From Sclerotinia nivalis (taxonomy: Eukaryota > Ascomycota > Leotiomycetes > Helotiales > Sclerotiniaceae), in contig JAPEIS010000003.1 of assembly GCA_029531795.1 (NCBI GenBank), forward strand, positions 2,914,001 through 2,978,000: DNA of 64,000 nucleotides, written 5' to 3'. The notes beneath the pieces were generated by a model. It saw only the letters and a list, made by a program, of their open reading frames with translations. It ran no database searches and was not told the origin of the DNA. The number at the start of each line of letters is the position of its first letter. Within the stretch, counting starts at the first letter, position 1. Made by a program: the position numbers and the translations under genes. Shown in pieces: positions 2,305 to 41,356 of the stretch.

Positions 2305-5300
2305 GATGGAATTCTCACCAGCGTCAGTACACCAGTGCGTCACACTTGAAACCCCAAGTGAAGGATTGAATGATTGTGATACAGAATATGGAAAGCCGAG
2401 AATCGATACAACTCGTGCAGCAGGGGTCTTTTTGATTGACTGAGATCTTCAATGTGATAACGCAAACTTCAAAGATATTTCGAGGAGAACAGAATATTAT
2501 GCAGAATTTTAGGAAGTAAAGTATTGAAACAAAGAGAGTACAATAGTATTCATGGAATGAGCCAACATTTAAGAAAAGAATGTAAGCAGTTAAAGAAACG
2601 ACTTCGTTAGTATATCAGGGGGTTCCCAGGCTGAGTAACGTCAAGCTGAAAGGAATGTCTGAGCCGAACACCAGTTTTCCGGGGCGTACATCATGAACAA
2701 ATAAAAGTGGAAAGAACGACAAGCATTCATCAGGCTGCGTTGAAGAAGTACTCTTAAATTGACCAATGAAAATGAGAGAGATAAAAATTGATACTGGAAG
2801 TTTCATTCCATTGATGATCCCATACCAAGAAACTATTTCCAGATATCAATTAGTTTGACTGAAGTATGGGGGCCATGAAATCAGCCGTGGCCGTAAGCAT
2901 CAAATCAGCAAGACGACGTGATATCTGATTATTGAGATTGCGAGATTGGTTGATGAAGGACAAGTAATGAGTAAGAAAAGTCAGCCCTTAATCCTGCCAT
3001 TACTCTTTTATGTGCCATAATCACAATTGACGAGATGTTATCGAGAATCATTGCGAAATACTAAATCCGTTTTCCGCCCTCTTTTCTTCCATTTCCCCCT
3101 CTATTTTCCCCATAGAATAGATATGAGAAAAAGATGGATAAAAAGCCCCCGGTGATTTGCGATAGCAACACACCCTCATATCTCGGAAAGGAAATCAACG
3201 GAATTGAGCCAACATGCAGCTAACGATGTGATGAATCTCATTGTCACCACTTTAGAAATTTTGGCGTCTTTTTTGATGCGTGCCATTGTGGTAAGTCGGG
3301 GTGATTGAACGCACATCAATCACGGCACATTTTCATCCCATGTACTTCCGTACCTACCTACCTACCTAGTACGTACCCATTTGAGGATATTGAGCAATAT
3401 ACGAGATATACCGCGTAGGATCAATTGTGAACAAAATCAGACACCGAAGGATATCGATGCCTATCATGTCAACCGTTCAACCCGTTTAACCGTTTTGTGA
3501 CGGAATAAGTCATGATAATAGTCATTAGAGTGGGGGGTCAGCTTACATGAATTGAAGATTTGCTGTGCCTCGATATATGGGATCCCAAGAGTTTGTTAGA
3601 GAAAAAACATCATCATTATGAAGTCTAAATTAGACCCACGGTAAGCAATTACATAGCGGAATGTTCTATCCGTTTTCGATCATATTCCCATTTTGGTGTT
3701 TGGTGTGGTGGAAACATAGCCAGCCAGCCCTACCGGCCCAGAGGATTCCCGGGAAAAAATATTGTTAGGGACGTTTATTCTTGTCTGCGACGCCGTTTCT
3801 TCGTGTTTTGATCAATGGAGAGGTGAGGCGGCAGCAAGGGACTTTTACATTGTAAAATCTATTCTTGTCCTCCAATCTTGTGATGTGATGTGATATGATT
3901 TGATTTGTTCACTTGGTGCTTTGTATTTTACATTTCGTAACTACAGTAAGACGACTCGATCCCCTTGCTAGTCTAAGGAGAGGACTACTGTACTACCAAG
4001 CAGGTACACCACTTTTTCTTTTTCAGCACCGAAATTGATCCCATCCCATCCCCGTCCCGTCCCGTCCCGTCACTCTAATAGGTCCCTTAATACCTCGAAT
4101 ATCTCAAGGCATTCATCGCGTCCTACATCCAGACGGACGGGTGAGAAGGAAACCCTAAAAGCCCACAAGCCAAAACGTGGTTTACTAGTGGAGAATCCTT
4201 CCATCTTCGCGTGCACACTACCCTTACTCTAGTACGGTAACTAAAAAGCGGCTCAACATGAATACGAGCTATTATCTTTATGGAAAAACGTACGATGGCG
4301 CTCAAAGCATTTCCTCTAGTGAGGGCTGTCAAATGGCTTACCCGTTTTTCCTTCTCCTGTCTAGTCTGCGCCTCCTTTGTCGAGTCCTTGTAAGTCCATG
4401 CGTCTACTACTACACCACTCAATTTATTACATCAGTTTTATATGTGTCTGCGTGTGGAATGGTAATGTGATTTCGATTTTGATTTCTACAATTTGCAATT
4501 CCTTCGGTGTATATTTCGAGAGGAGAGGAGAATAAAATGGACCCCAAGCGCAGCGAGTAAAGGGCGCTTACCCCAATACCCCTATACAACAATTAATCCA
4601 TTACTAAAATGAATGACGCTCCGCTGGTTCTCCGAGGGCCATTGCCGTGGGGGCAGACTATTTGGACAGAGAATCTATTCTATTCTACCCTACTCTCAAT
4701 GTACTCCAGGTTCATCTTATCATCTCACAAAACGTGATATACTTCAAGTAAAGTTTGACGGGGCGCAGAGACGTCTTCTAATCCATAATGTCAATGATAC
4801 TAGGCAGGATCTCAATCCTTGAAATATTGTCGTCATTCTAGTCAGCTACTTCACATATTAGGTATTATTATTACTCATTGCTGGCTCTCGACTCACTCAC
4901 TTCATATCCGAGATGTGAGTGTGAAATATGTGTATGAAGTCACAAAACATTCAATGACTAACAATTTAGATATACCCGAATTGCGATAAGTTGCCATATT
5001 ATTATCCCAAGTTGTTGGAACACTCTACACATATCTAGACAAGACATCCCTTCCAATCCCCCAAAATTGCCAAAATTGCTTTAACCTTATATAATCTCAC
5101 CACAACAAGCATACCATACCATAATCCCCACAAACCGAACCAAACCATCGGTAACCTTACAAAGTACTCCGGACAAACTTCAAAACATTAACTTCGACTA
5201 CCTATAAATCCAAACCTTAAACAATAGATATATCAATCAATCAATAAAAAACAAGGTATTTAAAACACAGGAGGGGTATTACTATAATGTGCAGATTTAA

Positions 5301-31578: not shown

Positions 31579-33188
31579 GATTAGAGTCTATAGGTCTGAT
31601 TCGCCACAGTTGATTCCAAATCTATCGCGTTTTCGTGATTTCTCATTCAATCTCCGATGACAAGTCTTCAATGTGATACGAGGGCTGAATTCCGCCAGGT
31701 CAATTGCTATTGAATGGGTTTAGTGTGTCAGCGGAGGGGGTGGAAAGTTTGATATATGCTTCAATTGATCTGGGCTGCCAACGAAAACATGAAGAGAGGA
31801 ATGGTATATTGTATATTTTGTTGATAACTCTTGACATGATCATTTTGGATGTCAATTACTAATTATTGAATACGAAGATGTATGTAGGTCATGTAGGTCA
31901 TGTATGTCAGATGCAGCTTGCGTTGCTTCTTTGGAATACAAAGTACTTGATCGAGCCTAGTGCCTTGGCTTTGTTTTGTGTGTGTAGTCACGTGATGTTT
32001 CCTAAATCATCTATTAAACTCGAGCTCTCTGTCTGTCCTTCCTTTGTTCTAAATCTACATCATCTTTGATTTTACACTAGATTTGTGACAATTTGTTGGT
32101 TATTTCTCAAAATCTATTGTCACATAACTTATCGTTTTTCACAAAATCTATTGTCACATAACTTATCGCTTTTCACAAAATATCTTCATGTAGTCATTTC
32201 TGCCCCACTCGGTCAACCTGACAACAGCTGCGACTTCTTTTGACTTGCATCGTGAGCGTTCTTTGAAGTCGCACCTACCAGCTGTTTACAACTCATTAGC
32301 CTAATAGTTGCCCAATGTATATGTATATGTATATGTTTGTCCGTTGAATTGGGCTAGCTATGTTCAACTCTTTTGGAACAATACCGTAAGGATCAATCAT
32401 CAATCATCATTCGATATTTTCACATCATTTCGGTTCATCACTTATCGGCTTGATTGGATAAAGCCAATGCATCTTGTTATGTGTTATGTTATAGTGTTAT
32501 GCACCCACCTCGCCGGATGATTACACGGCGATAACACTTCGCGACCAATAATATGCTATGTGATGAACTGGTGCTTGAGGTTTCAAAATGGCTGAAATAG
32601 CCAACCCTTATTGGTTGATTTTCCATTCTCAAACTTGAGCGCTTATCAGTAACAAAAAAGCATGCACCCTTTCCACATCAGCTTGGTGCTGCATGAAAGG
32701 AATTATTTGGTAGCCAGCACGTGGCCAAGTTACAAATGCATGAGAGAAAAAGAAAAGTTGCCCATGTTTTCATTTTTCCTCCTCTTTTGCTGTTTCAAAT
32801 AATTAATCGCGTTGTTGAAGCAAACACTTTTTTCTTCTTCATGAAAATAATTATGGCTATTTTTCATTATTCGTTACACCATACTTCAGTGGTGATTTAA
32901 ACAAATCGAGGATACCATCTCTATTCTCTACTCTCTACTCGGTGAAGAATTCTATGAGGCTCATTGTTTGCGTCACCGTCGCTTTGACGAACCACCAACA
33001 CTTTTAACATCAACACCATATGCTTACACCCAAACTTAAACTTATATTTTAACTTTTCCTCCACCGAGGATTTATTTTTGTCATATAGTCTGCTGTTAAT
33101 CTATTCCAGTACCTTCAAACAAATTATTGTTAGATCGTACTCTTCATTCGACAAACTTGTATTTCCTCTCAGCGTACAGACCTCAACT
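31579..33188. other. 1.6-kb intergenic region (divergent promoters)
   Basis: It separates the bZIP gene (minus) from the Gag-like gene (plus). It contains a 34-bp tandem repeat (32109-32185), a TATATG run (about 32317-32336) and a Pyr-rich leader before 33189. No gene. Confidence 0.4.
32109..32185. repeat. 34-bp tandem repeat, just over two copies
   Basis: AAAATCTATTGTCACATAAC occurs at 32109 and 32143 followed by TTATCG and TTTTTCAC; a partial third unit follows. Confidence 0.85.
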
Positions 33189-34418
33189 ATGAGCGCATCA
33201 CGTCGCATGCCTAAATTTGAACAGGCAGGAAAGTTCACTGGCGAAAACCAATCAGCTTCGAGATGGCTCCGGAGAATTAAACTTGACCTGGCTGCTAGCA
33301 ACTCCGATACCATTTCAATTTCCATGTATTTATGGGCTATTGATGTTTTGTTGGAAGGACCTGCAGCACATTGGTGTGATTCTGTCCCTAAAATCAAAGA
33401 TATCTTAGAGAATTACGACACGGCAAATATGTCCGAGGTCAAATGGTTGGAGAGTGAGCTGATGAAGCAATTTCCTGGGAAGTTCATCCCTACTCCTGTG
33501 GACCGCGGGATTAGGAGCCGTTCACATAGTCTAGAGGCAAGTTCGGACTCAGGCAGCGCTGCGACAAGGCTAGGAAAGTTGTATATTGGAGAGAACCCCA
33601 AAGGCTGGAATCAAAGGCCAGAAGCACCACAGGTTTCCGAAGTGCATCGGAAAAATCGATACCATGACGATGGACAATATAAACGTGGGTCACGGCAAAA
33701 CACGATAGAAGGAAATGTCATTGATGAATACAAATTCCATGACAAACCCACGACTGCATCGAGGTCTCCAAAATACCACAATGAGCAGCACCACAGCTCT
33801 ACAACGTTTGCTCAAGCAACACAAATCTCCAAAAATTACAATACTGATCGAGCCCAACTATCCACAGCTCCAAAAAGCATCCTAAAAAGCAACACAAGCT
33901 ATTACCGGCAGCCAATTACCCGTTCTTACAGCAGCCAAGAACGCCCAAACGACCGCTACTCAAGAGTTAGGAGCCCCCCTCTCATTCAAAGCAATCATAA
34001 TACAGACCAATATCGAAGGCCTGAAACTCAACAGCCCCAACAGCCCCAACAATTACCACATGCTCATCATCCAACTGCTCCATCTCGCCCTTCTGAGTCG
34101 AGGCCGATATCCCAGAGTTTAAGAACTTCGTATCAGGGAGTCACAATAGTACCATCTAAGCCTGCAAAAGGGAATTGGTCCTATGTGCCACATACCACTT
34201 CTCGGTCCACTCGCTATCCAGTCCAGAAGTCGCCTAATCATGAACGGGATCCACTACCGTATCAAAAAAGATCAGAACCGACGTCTAGTTCTTGGAAAAC
34301 ATCCAACACTGCCATTGCTACACTTGAGCATCGTCGTCAAGCATCGATTCTGCCTTCTCGGAGGCCGGAATTCGAACGCAGAACCACATATCCGAAAATG
34401 GGCGCAGAATGGCGATGA
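33189..34418 (+). CDS. Gag-like (retrotransposon capsid-like) protein, stand-alone
   Basis: Single exon of 409 residues. ATG 33189 is chosen because the open frame upstream lacks an ATG. The first 100 residues (KFEQAGKFTGENQSASRWLR, then YLWAIDVLLEGPAAHWCDS, then WLESELMKQFPGKF) have the helical capsid-fold signature of fungal LTR-retrotransposon Gag: an F-x-G-x3-ASRWLRRI opening and an L-x-G-PAAxWxDS core. The remaining 300 residues are Ser/Arg/Gln/His-rich and disordered, with a QQPQQPQQ stretch. No CCHC knuckle, protease, reverse transcriptase or LTR is seen nearby. It may be a domesticated Gag or a remnant; the long intact frame and 5' leader favour an expressed gene. Confidence 0.65.
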   Translation: MSASRRMPKFEQAGKFTGENQSASRWLRRIKLDLAASNSDTISISMYLWAIDVLLEGPAAHWCDSVPKIKDILENYDTANMSEVKWLESELMKQFPGKFIPTPVDRGIRSRSHSLEASSDSGSAATRLGKLYIGENPKGWNQRPEAPQVSEVHRKNRYHDDGQYKRGSRQNTIEGNVIDEYKFHDKPTTASRSPKYHNEQHHSSTTFAQATQISKNYNTDRAQLSTAPKSILKSNTSYYRQPITRSYSSQERPNDRYSRVRSPPLIQSNHNTDQYRRPETQQPQQPQQLPHAHHPTAPSRPSESRPISQSLRTSYQGVTIVPSKPAKGNWSYVPHTTSRSTRYPVQKSPNHERDPLPYQKRSEPTSSSWKTSNTAIATLEHRRQASILPSRRPEFERRTTYPKMGAEWR

Positions 34419-38196: not shown

Positions 38197-41100
38197 ATGC
38201 TTGATCCCTTTTCAGCTGTCAGTCTTGCTGCGGCTATCATTCAACTCGTGGATTTTAGTTCAAAGGTCATCTCTAGTGCTGCGGAGCTACATCGCTCCTC
38301 TAGCGGAGCCTTGGCTAACAATCTTGAGCTCTCTACCATCGTCTCGGATCTCAGTGCTCTCAGCAATAATTTAGAGGCACGAATCCTTCACCAAGGAAAG
38401 CATAGCTGCAACACGGACGAGCAGGCGATCAGAAGCCTTGCCTCAGAATGTAAAGAATTATCAGACAAGCTCCTGCATGACCTTGATGGCTTGAAAATCA
38501 AGGGGCCACACACAATGTGGGCAAGTGCTCGTCAATCACTGCGCAGCTTGTGGAAGGAAGCTTATATTTCCCATATGTTGAAACAGCTAGATGGTTTTCG
38601 AAGTTAACTGATGGTTAGGCAATTAGCTTTTATGAAGTATGATTATATCTTCACAATTAAATACCCATCTGTCATTTTAATGAAAGCTGACTTTTTTTAC
38701 ATTCAGTGACCGACAATATGAGATGAGTTTAGAGCTCAAGGAACTGCAACACTGCCAAGGTCTTATGGAAACGAACATAACGCATAACTTGCTCGCTATA
38801 TCTCAAGATATTTGCAAGCATCAACAAGCCAATGATGAAGCATGGAATCAATTCTCGAGCACTATTGAACATGAAAGGGCACTTATTACCCAGCGCGCAA
38901 TCCTTGAAACACTGAAATACGAAAGGATGAGTCAAAGAAAGTCTAATATCATCGAAGCACACATTGGCACTTTCGAATGGATATTTGACCCTCTTCGGGT
39001 AGGATTCATGCATTGGCTCCGTGAAGGTGGCGACATATATTGGATCAATGGGAATGCTGGTTCTGGGAAATCTACGCTCATGAAGTATCTAATGGGCCAC
39101 GACGTGGTCAAAAACGCTCTAGTAGATTGGGCCGGCACGAAACCTCTTTTCACAGGCAATTACTACTTTTGGAGTACTGGGAATGAAATGGAAATTTCCT
39201 TATTATATATAATAATATTGATAAGGAGGGTTTTTGAACCCCAGGATTAGTTTTCACTTCCCCTACTCAATTAAGAGATGGAGATCAACTCCATCGATTT
39301 AACTCTGTACTTGCTATGGTCGCTAGGCCAGCATATTACCATTTATTATTTGTTAGAAGCTTATAAAGCTTCTAGCCGTCTTAGATAGTCTTAGACTCAG
39401 TGTAGACGTTAATTAAAAATCAAATCAAAATCAAATGAAATGGAAAAATCTCAACAAGGACTTCTACAATCACTTCTATACGATATTTTGGGAAACTGTC
39501 CTTTAGTATTGCCAAAACTGTTCCCAGATAGATGGGCGTCGCCAAACCACGCAGGTATCAACATGGATGGCTCTTGGTCGCAAGCTGAGCTTCTAGCCGC
39601 GCTCAACCAGCTCACAAAAGAGCAAATATTGCCGGGCAAGTTTATTTTTTTCATTGACGGTGTGGATGAATACATGGGGGATCCATCAGAAATTGCACGT
39701 CTCTTGAAAGCATTTGCAAAATGTGCAGATGTGAAACTCATCGTCTCGAGTCGACCTTGGACAGATATCAAAACGTTTCTCAACCCAATCCCAGGCCAAT
39801 CATTAACTTTGCAAGACTTCACCCGAGAAGATATCAAACACTACATTCATGAATTGATAACTGAACATCCTGGTTTCCGGAACACGCAAATAGACAATTA
39901 CAACAACCTCATCGCCGAAATAGGCAGGAAATCTGAAGGTGTTTTTCTCTGGGTCGTCTTCGCTGTCCGGGAAATATTGAAGGGATTGACGAATGAAGAT
40001 TCAATTTCTGAACTCGAAGCTAGACTACAAGATATACCACCCGGGCTAGAAGAATTCTTCCAACGAATACTGAATAGTATCGAGAAGCGTTATCGCCCTC
40101 AAACATCGCAAATTCTTCGAATGTGCTTAGCAGCTAACCACCCGTTGCCTCTCCTTACCTTTTCCTTTCTGAAGAAAGAACAGGACAATCCGAATTATGC
40201 GATTTCGGAAAAAATAATCCCATGGACCACTGATCATATGGAAAAGGAGCTTGAGACTTTGAAGAAACGAGTAAACGCTCGTTGCCGTGATTTTCTGCAG
40301 ATTGTTAGCATTGGTCAACCAATGTCCTGTGTCGAGTTCTTGCACAGAACGGTTAGGGATTTCTTTTCAGAGCACAGAAACCAGGCGCGTTTACATGATT
40401 GGATACAATATCCGTACAATCCTCATTTGTCACTGTGTCGCTCGTTCGCGATGCAGATGAAAGTCCTACCAGTGGGCAAGTCGCACCCCAAACATCTGAT
40501 CGAGCCAATCACTTCCTCTTTGTATCATGCTGCACGAACGGACACCAGCTGCGGCCCAGAAGCGTCAGAAATAATTGAAGAGATTGACCGCATCGTTAAT
40601 GTTCGGAAAAGTCGGTACAGAGAAGATAATTTCCTAGGGCATTTTTTTGGGTTTTCAGAAGATGATTGGGAGCGAGGCTCGATCCTGGCAATAGCAGTTC
40701 AAAACGGAAATATTGGGTATGTTCGACAGAAGCTTCAAGAGAATCCTGCTTTACTGAACAAAACCTATGGGGGCCACTACCTCCTTTTTTTTGCTTTGAT
40801 CCACCCGAACGTAGCCTTATCGCGTCCCGCAGATGAGGTTATCTCGATGGTCCGGATGCTTCTAGAAGCTGGTGCTAACCCGAATCAGCATGAAGAGCAT
40901 GTGAATTTTTCTCACAAAAAGAATAGGGACGGCACTTCTATCCCAGGGACTCTCACGAGAGAAAATGTCACTAGCGGGCTTTGGGCCACATTCCTGCAGA
41001 TCGCGTTTTCAAATTATGGGGGGATCTTCGGCCGCGAAGTCAGGACAGAATCTTTTAGATTGTTACTCGATCATGGCGCTGACCTTTCGGTCAAGCTTGT

Positions 41101-41356
41101 TAATGATCGGGAACATGAGCCATTACAATACCACAGCGTGTCCGAATATCTTGAAAAAATGCTGCCTGATTCAGTTGAATGTTATAACATCCTCCTCGAG
41201 CACATGAGGAAGAATGAATCAAGGAATACCTGGAGCGGTATTTTGAAGCGGAGATTTAAGTTGTCGAATATTTTGAGTTACATCTCAGGGGTAGAGACTG
41301 GAGTACTAAGTTACGTTGTACACAACATAATCATAATTGCCTTGGAAATGCTGTAA
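38197..41356 (+). pseudogene. NLR-like STAND gene (Helo-like N, NACHT, ankyrin-like), disrupted by insertion
   Basis: Part 1 (38197-38607) encodes a Helo-like fungal STAND N-domain (MLDPFSAVSLAAAIIQLVDF). Part 2 (about 38708-39194) carries the NACHT start, with Walker A in GNAGSGKST and YYFWSTGNEME. Part 3 (39447-41356) resumes KSQQGLLQSLLYDIL, Walker B in FIFFIDGVDEY, sensor-like IVSSRPW, then a helical region and degenerate ankyrin-type repeats (LLEAGANPNQ, LLLDHGADLS). Fungal proteins of this type act in non-self recognition and programmed cell death. A 252-bp net insertion (239-bp element plus one 13-bp duplication) splits the NACHT domain with an in-frame stop. The intron between parts 1 and 2 has a strong acceptor, but the expected donor reads TTAACT where GTAACT would keep frame. 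It is probably a pseudogene. Confidence 0.85.
39195..39433 (+). mobile_element. 239-bp non-autonomous retroelement-like (SINE-like) insertion
   Basis: The element lies between two perfect copies of AATGAAATGGAAA (39182-39194 and 39434-39446). It has no ORF and ends in an A-rich AAATC-reiterated tail (about 39415-39433). A duplication of this length plus an A-rich 3' end is what target-primed reverse transcription leaves. A palindromic GGGTTTTTGAACCCC (near 39229) could be a degenerate RNA polymerase III box B, but no good box A is visible, so SINE is a working label. It interrupts the NACHT coding sequence. Confidence 0.75.

What the first reader, a model, noticed from the sequence alone, without database searches (positions are those of the whole stretch)
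39182..39446. NLR-like gene split between Walker A and Walker B by a 239-bp element with a 13-bp target-site duplication
AATGAAATGGAAA is present on both sides of a 239-bp non-coding segment. The two coding parts are exactly 252 bp (84 codons) out of register with each other, so one copy of the duplication plus flanking sequence reads GNEMEKSQQGLLQSLL in frame, a stretch expected in NACHT proteins. The element has an A-rich reiterated tail. This is a clean non-LTR-type insertion that has killed, or made polymorphic, a non-self-recognition gene.
Basis: partly seen in the sequence, partly recalled or inferred. Interest (0 to 1): 0.8.

Follow-up and report, generated by a model that had tools for sequence, protein, structure and literature searches.

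The report
LINE fragment interrupting a broken NLR
A short leftover tail of a common jumping gene has landed inside a fungal immune-type receptor gene that also carries an independent early stop, so this is an ordinary, well-preserved example of a mobile element interrupting a decaying gene.

Summary
AATGAAATGGAAA occurs at 39182-39194 and 39434-39446 around a 239-bp segment lying between Walker A and Walker B of a NACHT/NPHP3_N gene. The segment is not a complete short element. It is the 5'-truncated 3' end of a multi-copy LINE: longer copies carry an endonuclease-RT-RNase H ORF, and a 25-bp 3' motif occurs 431 times in the genome (control 0). Ten of 18 truncated copies examined, this one included, have 13-14 bp flanking repeats. 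The closest copy compared differs at 1 of 220 bases, so the insertion looks young. Six of 9 Sclerotiniaceae protein models read straight through the site (the other 3 diverge or lack it), so the insertion is derived. The host is almost certainly Sclerotinia nivalis.

That the insertion killed the gene is only partly supported: exon 1 has its own in-frame stop at 38605-38607, and the order of the lesions is unknown. No isolate or RNA data were available. Known kind, new member. The boldest reading left open is parallel loss of this DUF7791-type NLR across the family: 8 of 9 relatives' models look damaged.

The parts
38197..38636 (+). NLR exon 1, SesA-like N-terminal region (weak Pfam match)
   Evidence: SesA PF17107 19.4 bits, below its 26.3 cut-off; aligns with the N-termini of 8 of the 11 relatives aligned
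38605..38607 (+). in-frame TAA inside exon 1, independent of the insertion
   Evidence: of the 8 relatives with this region 7 read on and one model (P0006) has a gap there
38637..38706 (+). inferred intron 1 (70 bp, GTATGA...TTCAG)
   Evidence: sequence; placed by hand so that frame and residues match relatives; the intron-1 scan used a wrong upstream frame and was discarded; no RNA evidence
38707..39194 (+). NLR exon 2, upstream part with Walker A (GNAGSGKS), ending in TSD copy 1
   Evidence: NPHP3_N profile positions 1-65; alignment
39182..39194 (+). target-site duplication, copy 1
39195..39433 (+). 5'-truncated LINE 3' end, same sense as the gene
   Evidence: 41 matches in own genome (463 candidates, 40 scored); most fetched copies extend further upstream
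39374..39414 (+). terminal 41 bp of the LINE 3' UTR, conserved between subfamilies
   Evidence: identical in 17 of 22 aligned copies; last 25 bp counted genome-wide
39415..39433 (+). irregular A-rich (AATC-type) tail
39434..39446 (+). target-site duplication, copy 2
39434..41356 (+). NLR downstream part: Walker B (FFIDGVDE), DUF7791, weak ankyrin; stop at 41354-41356
   Evidence: NPHP3_N positions 65-164, DUF7791 98.6 bits, Ank 17.5 bits below its 21.1 cut-off

Best explanation
A LINE of a multi-copy family in this Sclerotinia genome inserted by target-primed reverse transcription into exon 2 of an NLR gene. Its endonuclease nicked the target, its reverse transcriptase started at the conserved 3' end of its own RNA and copied about 240 nt before stopping (5' truncation), and the staggered second cut gave the 13-bp duplication. 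The insert brings in-frame stops between Walker A and Walker B. The gene also has a separate in-frame stop in exon 1, so the locus is a pseudogene, or a null allele, with at least two lesions of unknown order. Shown: element identity, truncation, TSD, uninterrupted relatives at protein level, second stop. Inferred: the enzymatic steps, loss of function, role in non-self recognition.
For: Many genome copies, the best near-full-length ones 96-98% identical and the closest 219 of 220 bases identical outside the tail. A 25-bp 3' motif occurs 431 times at up to 2 mismatches, control 0. Longer copies run upstream into an ORF with Exo_endo_phos_2, RVT_1 and RNase_H. Ten of 16 truncated copies (window copy among the ten) have exact 13-14 bp flanking repeats; none of 270 control placements exceeds 6 bp. 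NPHP3_N is split 65|65. Six of 9 Sclerotiniaceae proteins read through the site. Exon 1 stop.
Against: Six of those 16 copies, and 2 more looked at only (L033, L038), show no clear TSD at the crude junctions used. Three of 9 Sclerotiniaceae models diverge at the site (P0004) or lack it (P0008, P0011). Relatives were compared as predicted proteins, not as DNA. No RNA or isolate data. The tail is irregular compared with the family's.
Confidence: 0.93

Rival explanations
1. A SINE, i.e. a complete short element borrowing a LINE's machinery through a shared 3' end.
For: Short, with a conserved 3' end and a reiterated tail.
Against: Most fetched copies continue upstream beyond the window's 5' junction, 7 of 12 larger pieces share over 2 kb, and truncation points vary between copies. 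No tRNA (ARAGORN) or Rfam match at gathering score in the window.
Confidence: 0.03
2. The insert is spliced out or has become part of an intron, so the gene still makes protein.
For: Repeat plus element is a multiple of three, and six in-frame donor-acceptor pairs in the scanned ranges span it without a stop.
Against: Only two of the six have a GT donor (both GTACTG at 39174) and four have GC donors; the acceptors have at best one branch-like motif, 46 bases off. Every pair removes residues conserved in relatives. The exon 1 stop remains.
Confidence: 0.05
3. The exon 1 stop came first and the LINE merely landed in an already dead gene (a refinement of the best explanation, not an exclusive alternative).
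For: Independent in-frame stop at 38605-38607; 8 of 9 relatives' models also look damaged.
Against: The rest of the coding parts stay open over about 800 codons, which suggests that the gene has not been dead for long; the order is not resolved.
Confidence: 0.4

Closest known systems
Fungal Tad1-type LINEs (non-LTR retrotransposons; comparison from recall)
   Same: Endonuclease, RT and RNase H domains in one ORF, CCHC-like motifs in the ORF upstream (read by eye), 5' truncation, short TSDs
   Different: Clade not tested by a tree; no Pfam match for the upstream ORF; tail is AATC-type repeats
Stringent-type LINEs with 3' tail recognition (UnaL2, ZfL2; PMC4176376, abstract and passages seen)
   Same: 3' end better conserved than the rest of the 3' UTR, followed by a short tandem-repeat tail
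   Different: Recognition of a stem-loop not shown; one hairpin tested gave no clear covariation
Fungal NACHT/NLR genes, including het genes (PMC9815663, passages seen)
   Same: P-loop NTPase domain, SesA-like N-terminus (weak), C-terminal region with a weak ankyrin match
   Different: DUF7791 present; no known incompatibility phenotype; gene broken

Membership tests
LINE / non-LTR retrotransposon | RT ORF with endonuclease in longer copies | tested here: met
   RVT_1 109.4, Exo_endo_phos_2 79.5, RNase_H 42.3 bits in the 1303-aa ORF of one copy, L048
LINE / non-LTR retrotransposon | 5' truncated copies sharing one 3' end | tested here: met
   8 of 20 sampled copies judged truncated within about 600 bp, 12 run on; two of the 8 (L091, L093) match over only 34 and 42 bp; all 20 were chosen for a perfect 3' motif
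LINE / non-LTR retrotransposon | target-site duplications | tested here: met
   10 of 16 copies with 13-14 bp exact repeats, 0 of 270 control placements above 6 bp; 2 further copies without
Tad1 clade | RT phylogeny within Tad1 | not tested
   No tree built; domain content only
Stringent-type LINE | ORF2 recognises a structured 3' tail | tested here: inconclusive
   Terminal 41 bp identical in 17 of 22 copies. Hairpin: shuffles reach the observed covariation score in 47 of 500, pairs changed on both sides in 380 of 500, further pair types in 499 of 500
Fungal NLR (NACHT/NPHP3_N) | P-loop NTPase domain with Walker A and B | tested here: met
   NPHP3_N over its 24.8-bit cut-off in both parts, 33.3 and 27.2 bits; Walker motifs named by eye
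Heterokaryon-incompatibility gene | allele-specific incompatibility reaction | not testable with these tools
   needs isolates and fusion tests

The most novel reading that the evidence does not exclude
The NLR is a syntenic, DUF7791-bearing allorecognition or immune receptor, the only one of its kind over the Pfam cut-off in this genome, that is being lost independently in many Sclerotiniaceae by different lesions, of which the LINE insertion in S. nivalis is a fresh one. That would be parallel relaxation, or balancing selection on null alleles, at one locus.
Probability: 0.25. Interest if true: 0.5.

Novelty: new member of a known kind. Interest (0 to 1): 0.3.

Why it matters
It is a clear example of a LINE interrupting a fungal NLR, with full anatomy (junctions, truncation, TSD, source family). 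It offers a marker (insertion present or absent) for asking whether null alleles of this receptor segregate in Sclerotinia. On its own it changes no general picture: transposon hits in NLR-type genes are expected.

Tried and rejected
tRNA or Rfam origin of the segment: no match in the window. SINE reading: copies continue upstream. Functional intron: judged unlikely. Close paralogue in the own genome as an empty site: none; the best other match to the downstream part is 35% identical (14 matches, 20 candidates), so proteins of other species were used. RIP as cause of the stop: 95 of 101 differences in 8 LINE copies against L009 are C:G to T:A, but not in CpA alone (4 further copies named in the script were absent from the alignment and skipped), and the NLR's RIP indices (0.63, 1.48) are not shifted in the RIP direction from the window's (0.68, 1.33); PMC8959702 (passages seen) reports very low RIP in S. 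sclerotiorum and B. cinerea. Not pursued. Hairpin covariation: not convincing. The 30 RT loci fetched were not analysed further. Paper searches: the rows shown (only the top rows where more papers matched) name no paper on this locus or this LINE family by title or abstract start; nothing wider is claimed.

Full report
Observation. The window lies in an unnamed 50.3-Mb genome at G000:C3:2914001-2978000. At 39182-39194 and 39434-39446 the 13 bases AATGAAATGGAAA are identical, and 239 bp lie between. Upstream, an open frame with GNAGSGKS (Walker A) runs through the first copy to a stop ending at 39250. Downstream, a 647-codon frame opens at 39413 and carries FFIDGVDE (Walker B), DUF7791 and a weak ankyrin match. 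Pfam NPHP3_N ends at profile position 65 in one part and resumes at 65 in the other. Because repeat plus element is 252 bp, the two parts are in the same frame.

What the segment is. A search of the own genome gave 41 matches from 463 candidates, 40 of them scored, the window itself included. Apart from it, 21 copies are 85-99% identical and the others 78-82%. The 25-bp 3' motif was counted 431 times (212 forward, 219 reverse) at up to two mismatches, against 0 for the pattern read backwards. Among 39 fetched copies plus the window copy, most continue upstream beyond the window's 5' junction. Of twelve larger pieces, compared by three queries, seven share more than 2 kb with each other, and the other five share only about 0.3 to 1.0 kb. 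One of the seven, L048, has a 1303-aa ORF with endonuclease, RT and RNase H domains. A 217-aa ORF upstream of it has no Pfam match but contains CCHC-like motifs readable by eye. L048 may itself be 5' truncated, since similarity to other copies starts at or near the same base (4725-4747) of L048, so the full element is at least about 4.9 kb. The window copy is therefore a 5'-truncated LINE, in the same sense as the gene.

Mechanism evidence. In 16 truncated copies, the window copy among them, the longest exact flanking repeat was 13-14 bp in 10 and at most 6 in 6; in 270 placements with the junction moved 26-90 bp upstream none exceeded 6. Two more copies treated as truncated (L033, L038) gave no TSD and were not in the 16. 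In a positional, not random, sample of 20 copies with a perfect 3' motif on contig C1, 8 were judged truncated within about 600 bp, two of these on matches of only 34 and 42 bp. The terminal 41 bp of the 3' UTR are identical in 17 of 22 aligned copies and across three subfamilies that fall to 60-70% in places upstream; the five that differ (L015, L020, L024, L027, L029) do so by C-to-T or G-to-A changes. That is what a LINE whose enzyme recognises its own 3' tail would show; PMC4176376 (abstract and passages seen) describes that type and names the Tad1 clade among those with LINE/SINE pairs sharing a 3' tail. The hairpin that I tested is not supported by covariation: 47 of 500 shuffles reach the score, 380 of 500 the number of pairs changed on both sides. 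The copies were chosen by similarity or by the motif itself, and those had to hold the last ten bases, which favours conserved ends.

Age and derived state. Outside the tail the window copy differs from the closest copy compared (L009) at 1 of 220 bases, and its TSD is perfect, so the insertion looks young. Relatives were found by a protein search (277 proteins, 120 listed). Of nine Sclerotiniaceae proteins aligned, six read through the site: for example GNEIEKSQQGLLQSLL in Stromatinia cepivora, GNEMEKSQKGLLQSLL in Ciborinia camelliae and GNGMEKSQQGLLRSLL in S. sclerotiorum SS1G_09046. P0004 diverges right there, and P0008 and P0011 lack the stretch. They are predicted proteins, not DNA. Host: contig C9 has 2,654,634 bases, the same length as the contig of two Sclerotinia nivalis LINE proteins. 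A NOP4-like protein in the window is 97% identical over 89% of the query to S. trifoliorum and Stromatinia proteins. Locus tags place the NLR and the NOP4-like gene near each other in Stromatinia (EAF04_005887 and EAF04_005903) and Botrytis paeoniae (BPAE_0235g00060 and BPAE_0235g00150), so the locus is probably syntenic (inference from tag numbers).

Second lesion. Exon 1 is 38197-38636 and intron 1 is 38637-38706 (GTATGA...TTCAG), placed by hand from frame and alignment to relatives. An in-frame TAA stands at 38605-38607; of the eight relatives with this region, seven read on and one model (P0006) has a gap there. The other coding parts are open to 41353; the final stop comes a few residues before the end of several relatives. 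So the locus has two independent breaks, and 'the LINE killed the gene' cannot be claimed.

Splicing. In the ranges scanned (donors 39100-39250, acceptors 39300-39520) six frame-keeping, stop-free pairs span the insert: two with a GTACTG donor and four with GC donors, all with poor branch context. RNA evidence is lacking.

Wider state of this NLR. Among the nine Sclerotiniaceae proteins (P0001-P0006, P0008, P0011, P0015), only Ciborinia camelliae P0002 shows every part. The other eight lack a segment, have an altered Walker A (GKF in P0005, GES in P0011) or diverge at the site (P0004). Gene-model errors are possible, and the nine came from a search limited by protein length. In the own genome DUF7791 has one match, over its cut-off, at this locus (2 candidates scored). 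NPHP3_N has 54 matches, two of them the halves of this gene, and 10 rows have stops inside. PMC9815663 (passages seen) was used only for the general build of fungal NLRs.

Verdict. A true and well-preserved LINE insertion in an already or concurrently broken NLR-type gene. Kind known, member new, general interest modest.

Noticed in passing
G000 contig C9, about 2.445-2.655 Mb (L048 lies in it): The last 210 kb of this contig hold 7 of 54 NPHP3_N matches and 6 of the listed RVT_1 matches (151 found, list cut): NLR genes and LINEs interleaved near a contig end.
   Followed up: no
LINE 3' ends, e.g. window 39374-39414 and L009, L031, L035: The terminal 41 bp are identical in 17 of 22 copies from subfamilies that differ strongly upstream; suggests 3' tail recognition by the LINE enzyme.
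   Followed up: partly
LINE copies L011, L014, L015, L017, L020, L024, L027, L029 against L009: 95 of 101 differences are C:G to T:A, in CT (34), CC (32) and CA (25) contexts and rarely CG (4); RIP-like decay that is not limited to CpA.
   Followed up: partly
window 39195; L012; L016: Three copies are truncated within 10 bp of each other (positions 301, 299, 291 in the L009 frame), perhaps a preferred stopping point of reverse transcription.
   Followed up: no
P0001-P0006, P0008, P0011, P0015 (relatives of the NLR): Eight of nine Sclerotiniaceae gene models lack parts, have an altered Walker A or diverge at the insertion site.
   Followed up: partly
window 32988-34418: 476-codon open frame that reads gag-like by eye; possibly a domesticated or stray retroelement gag.
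   Followed up: no
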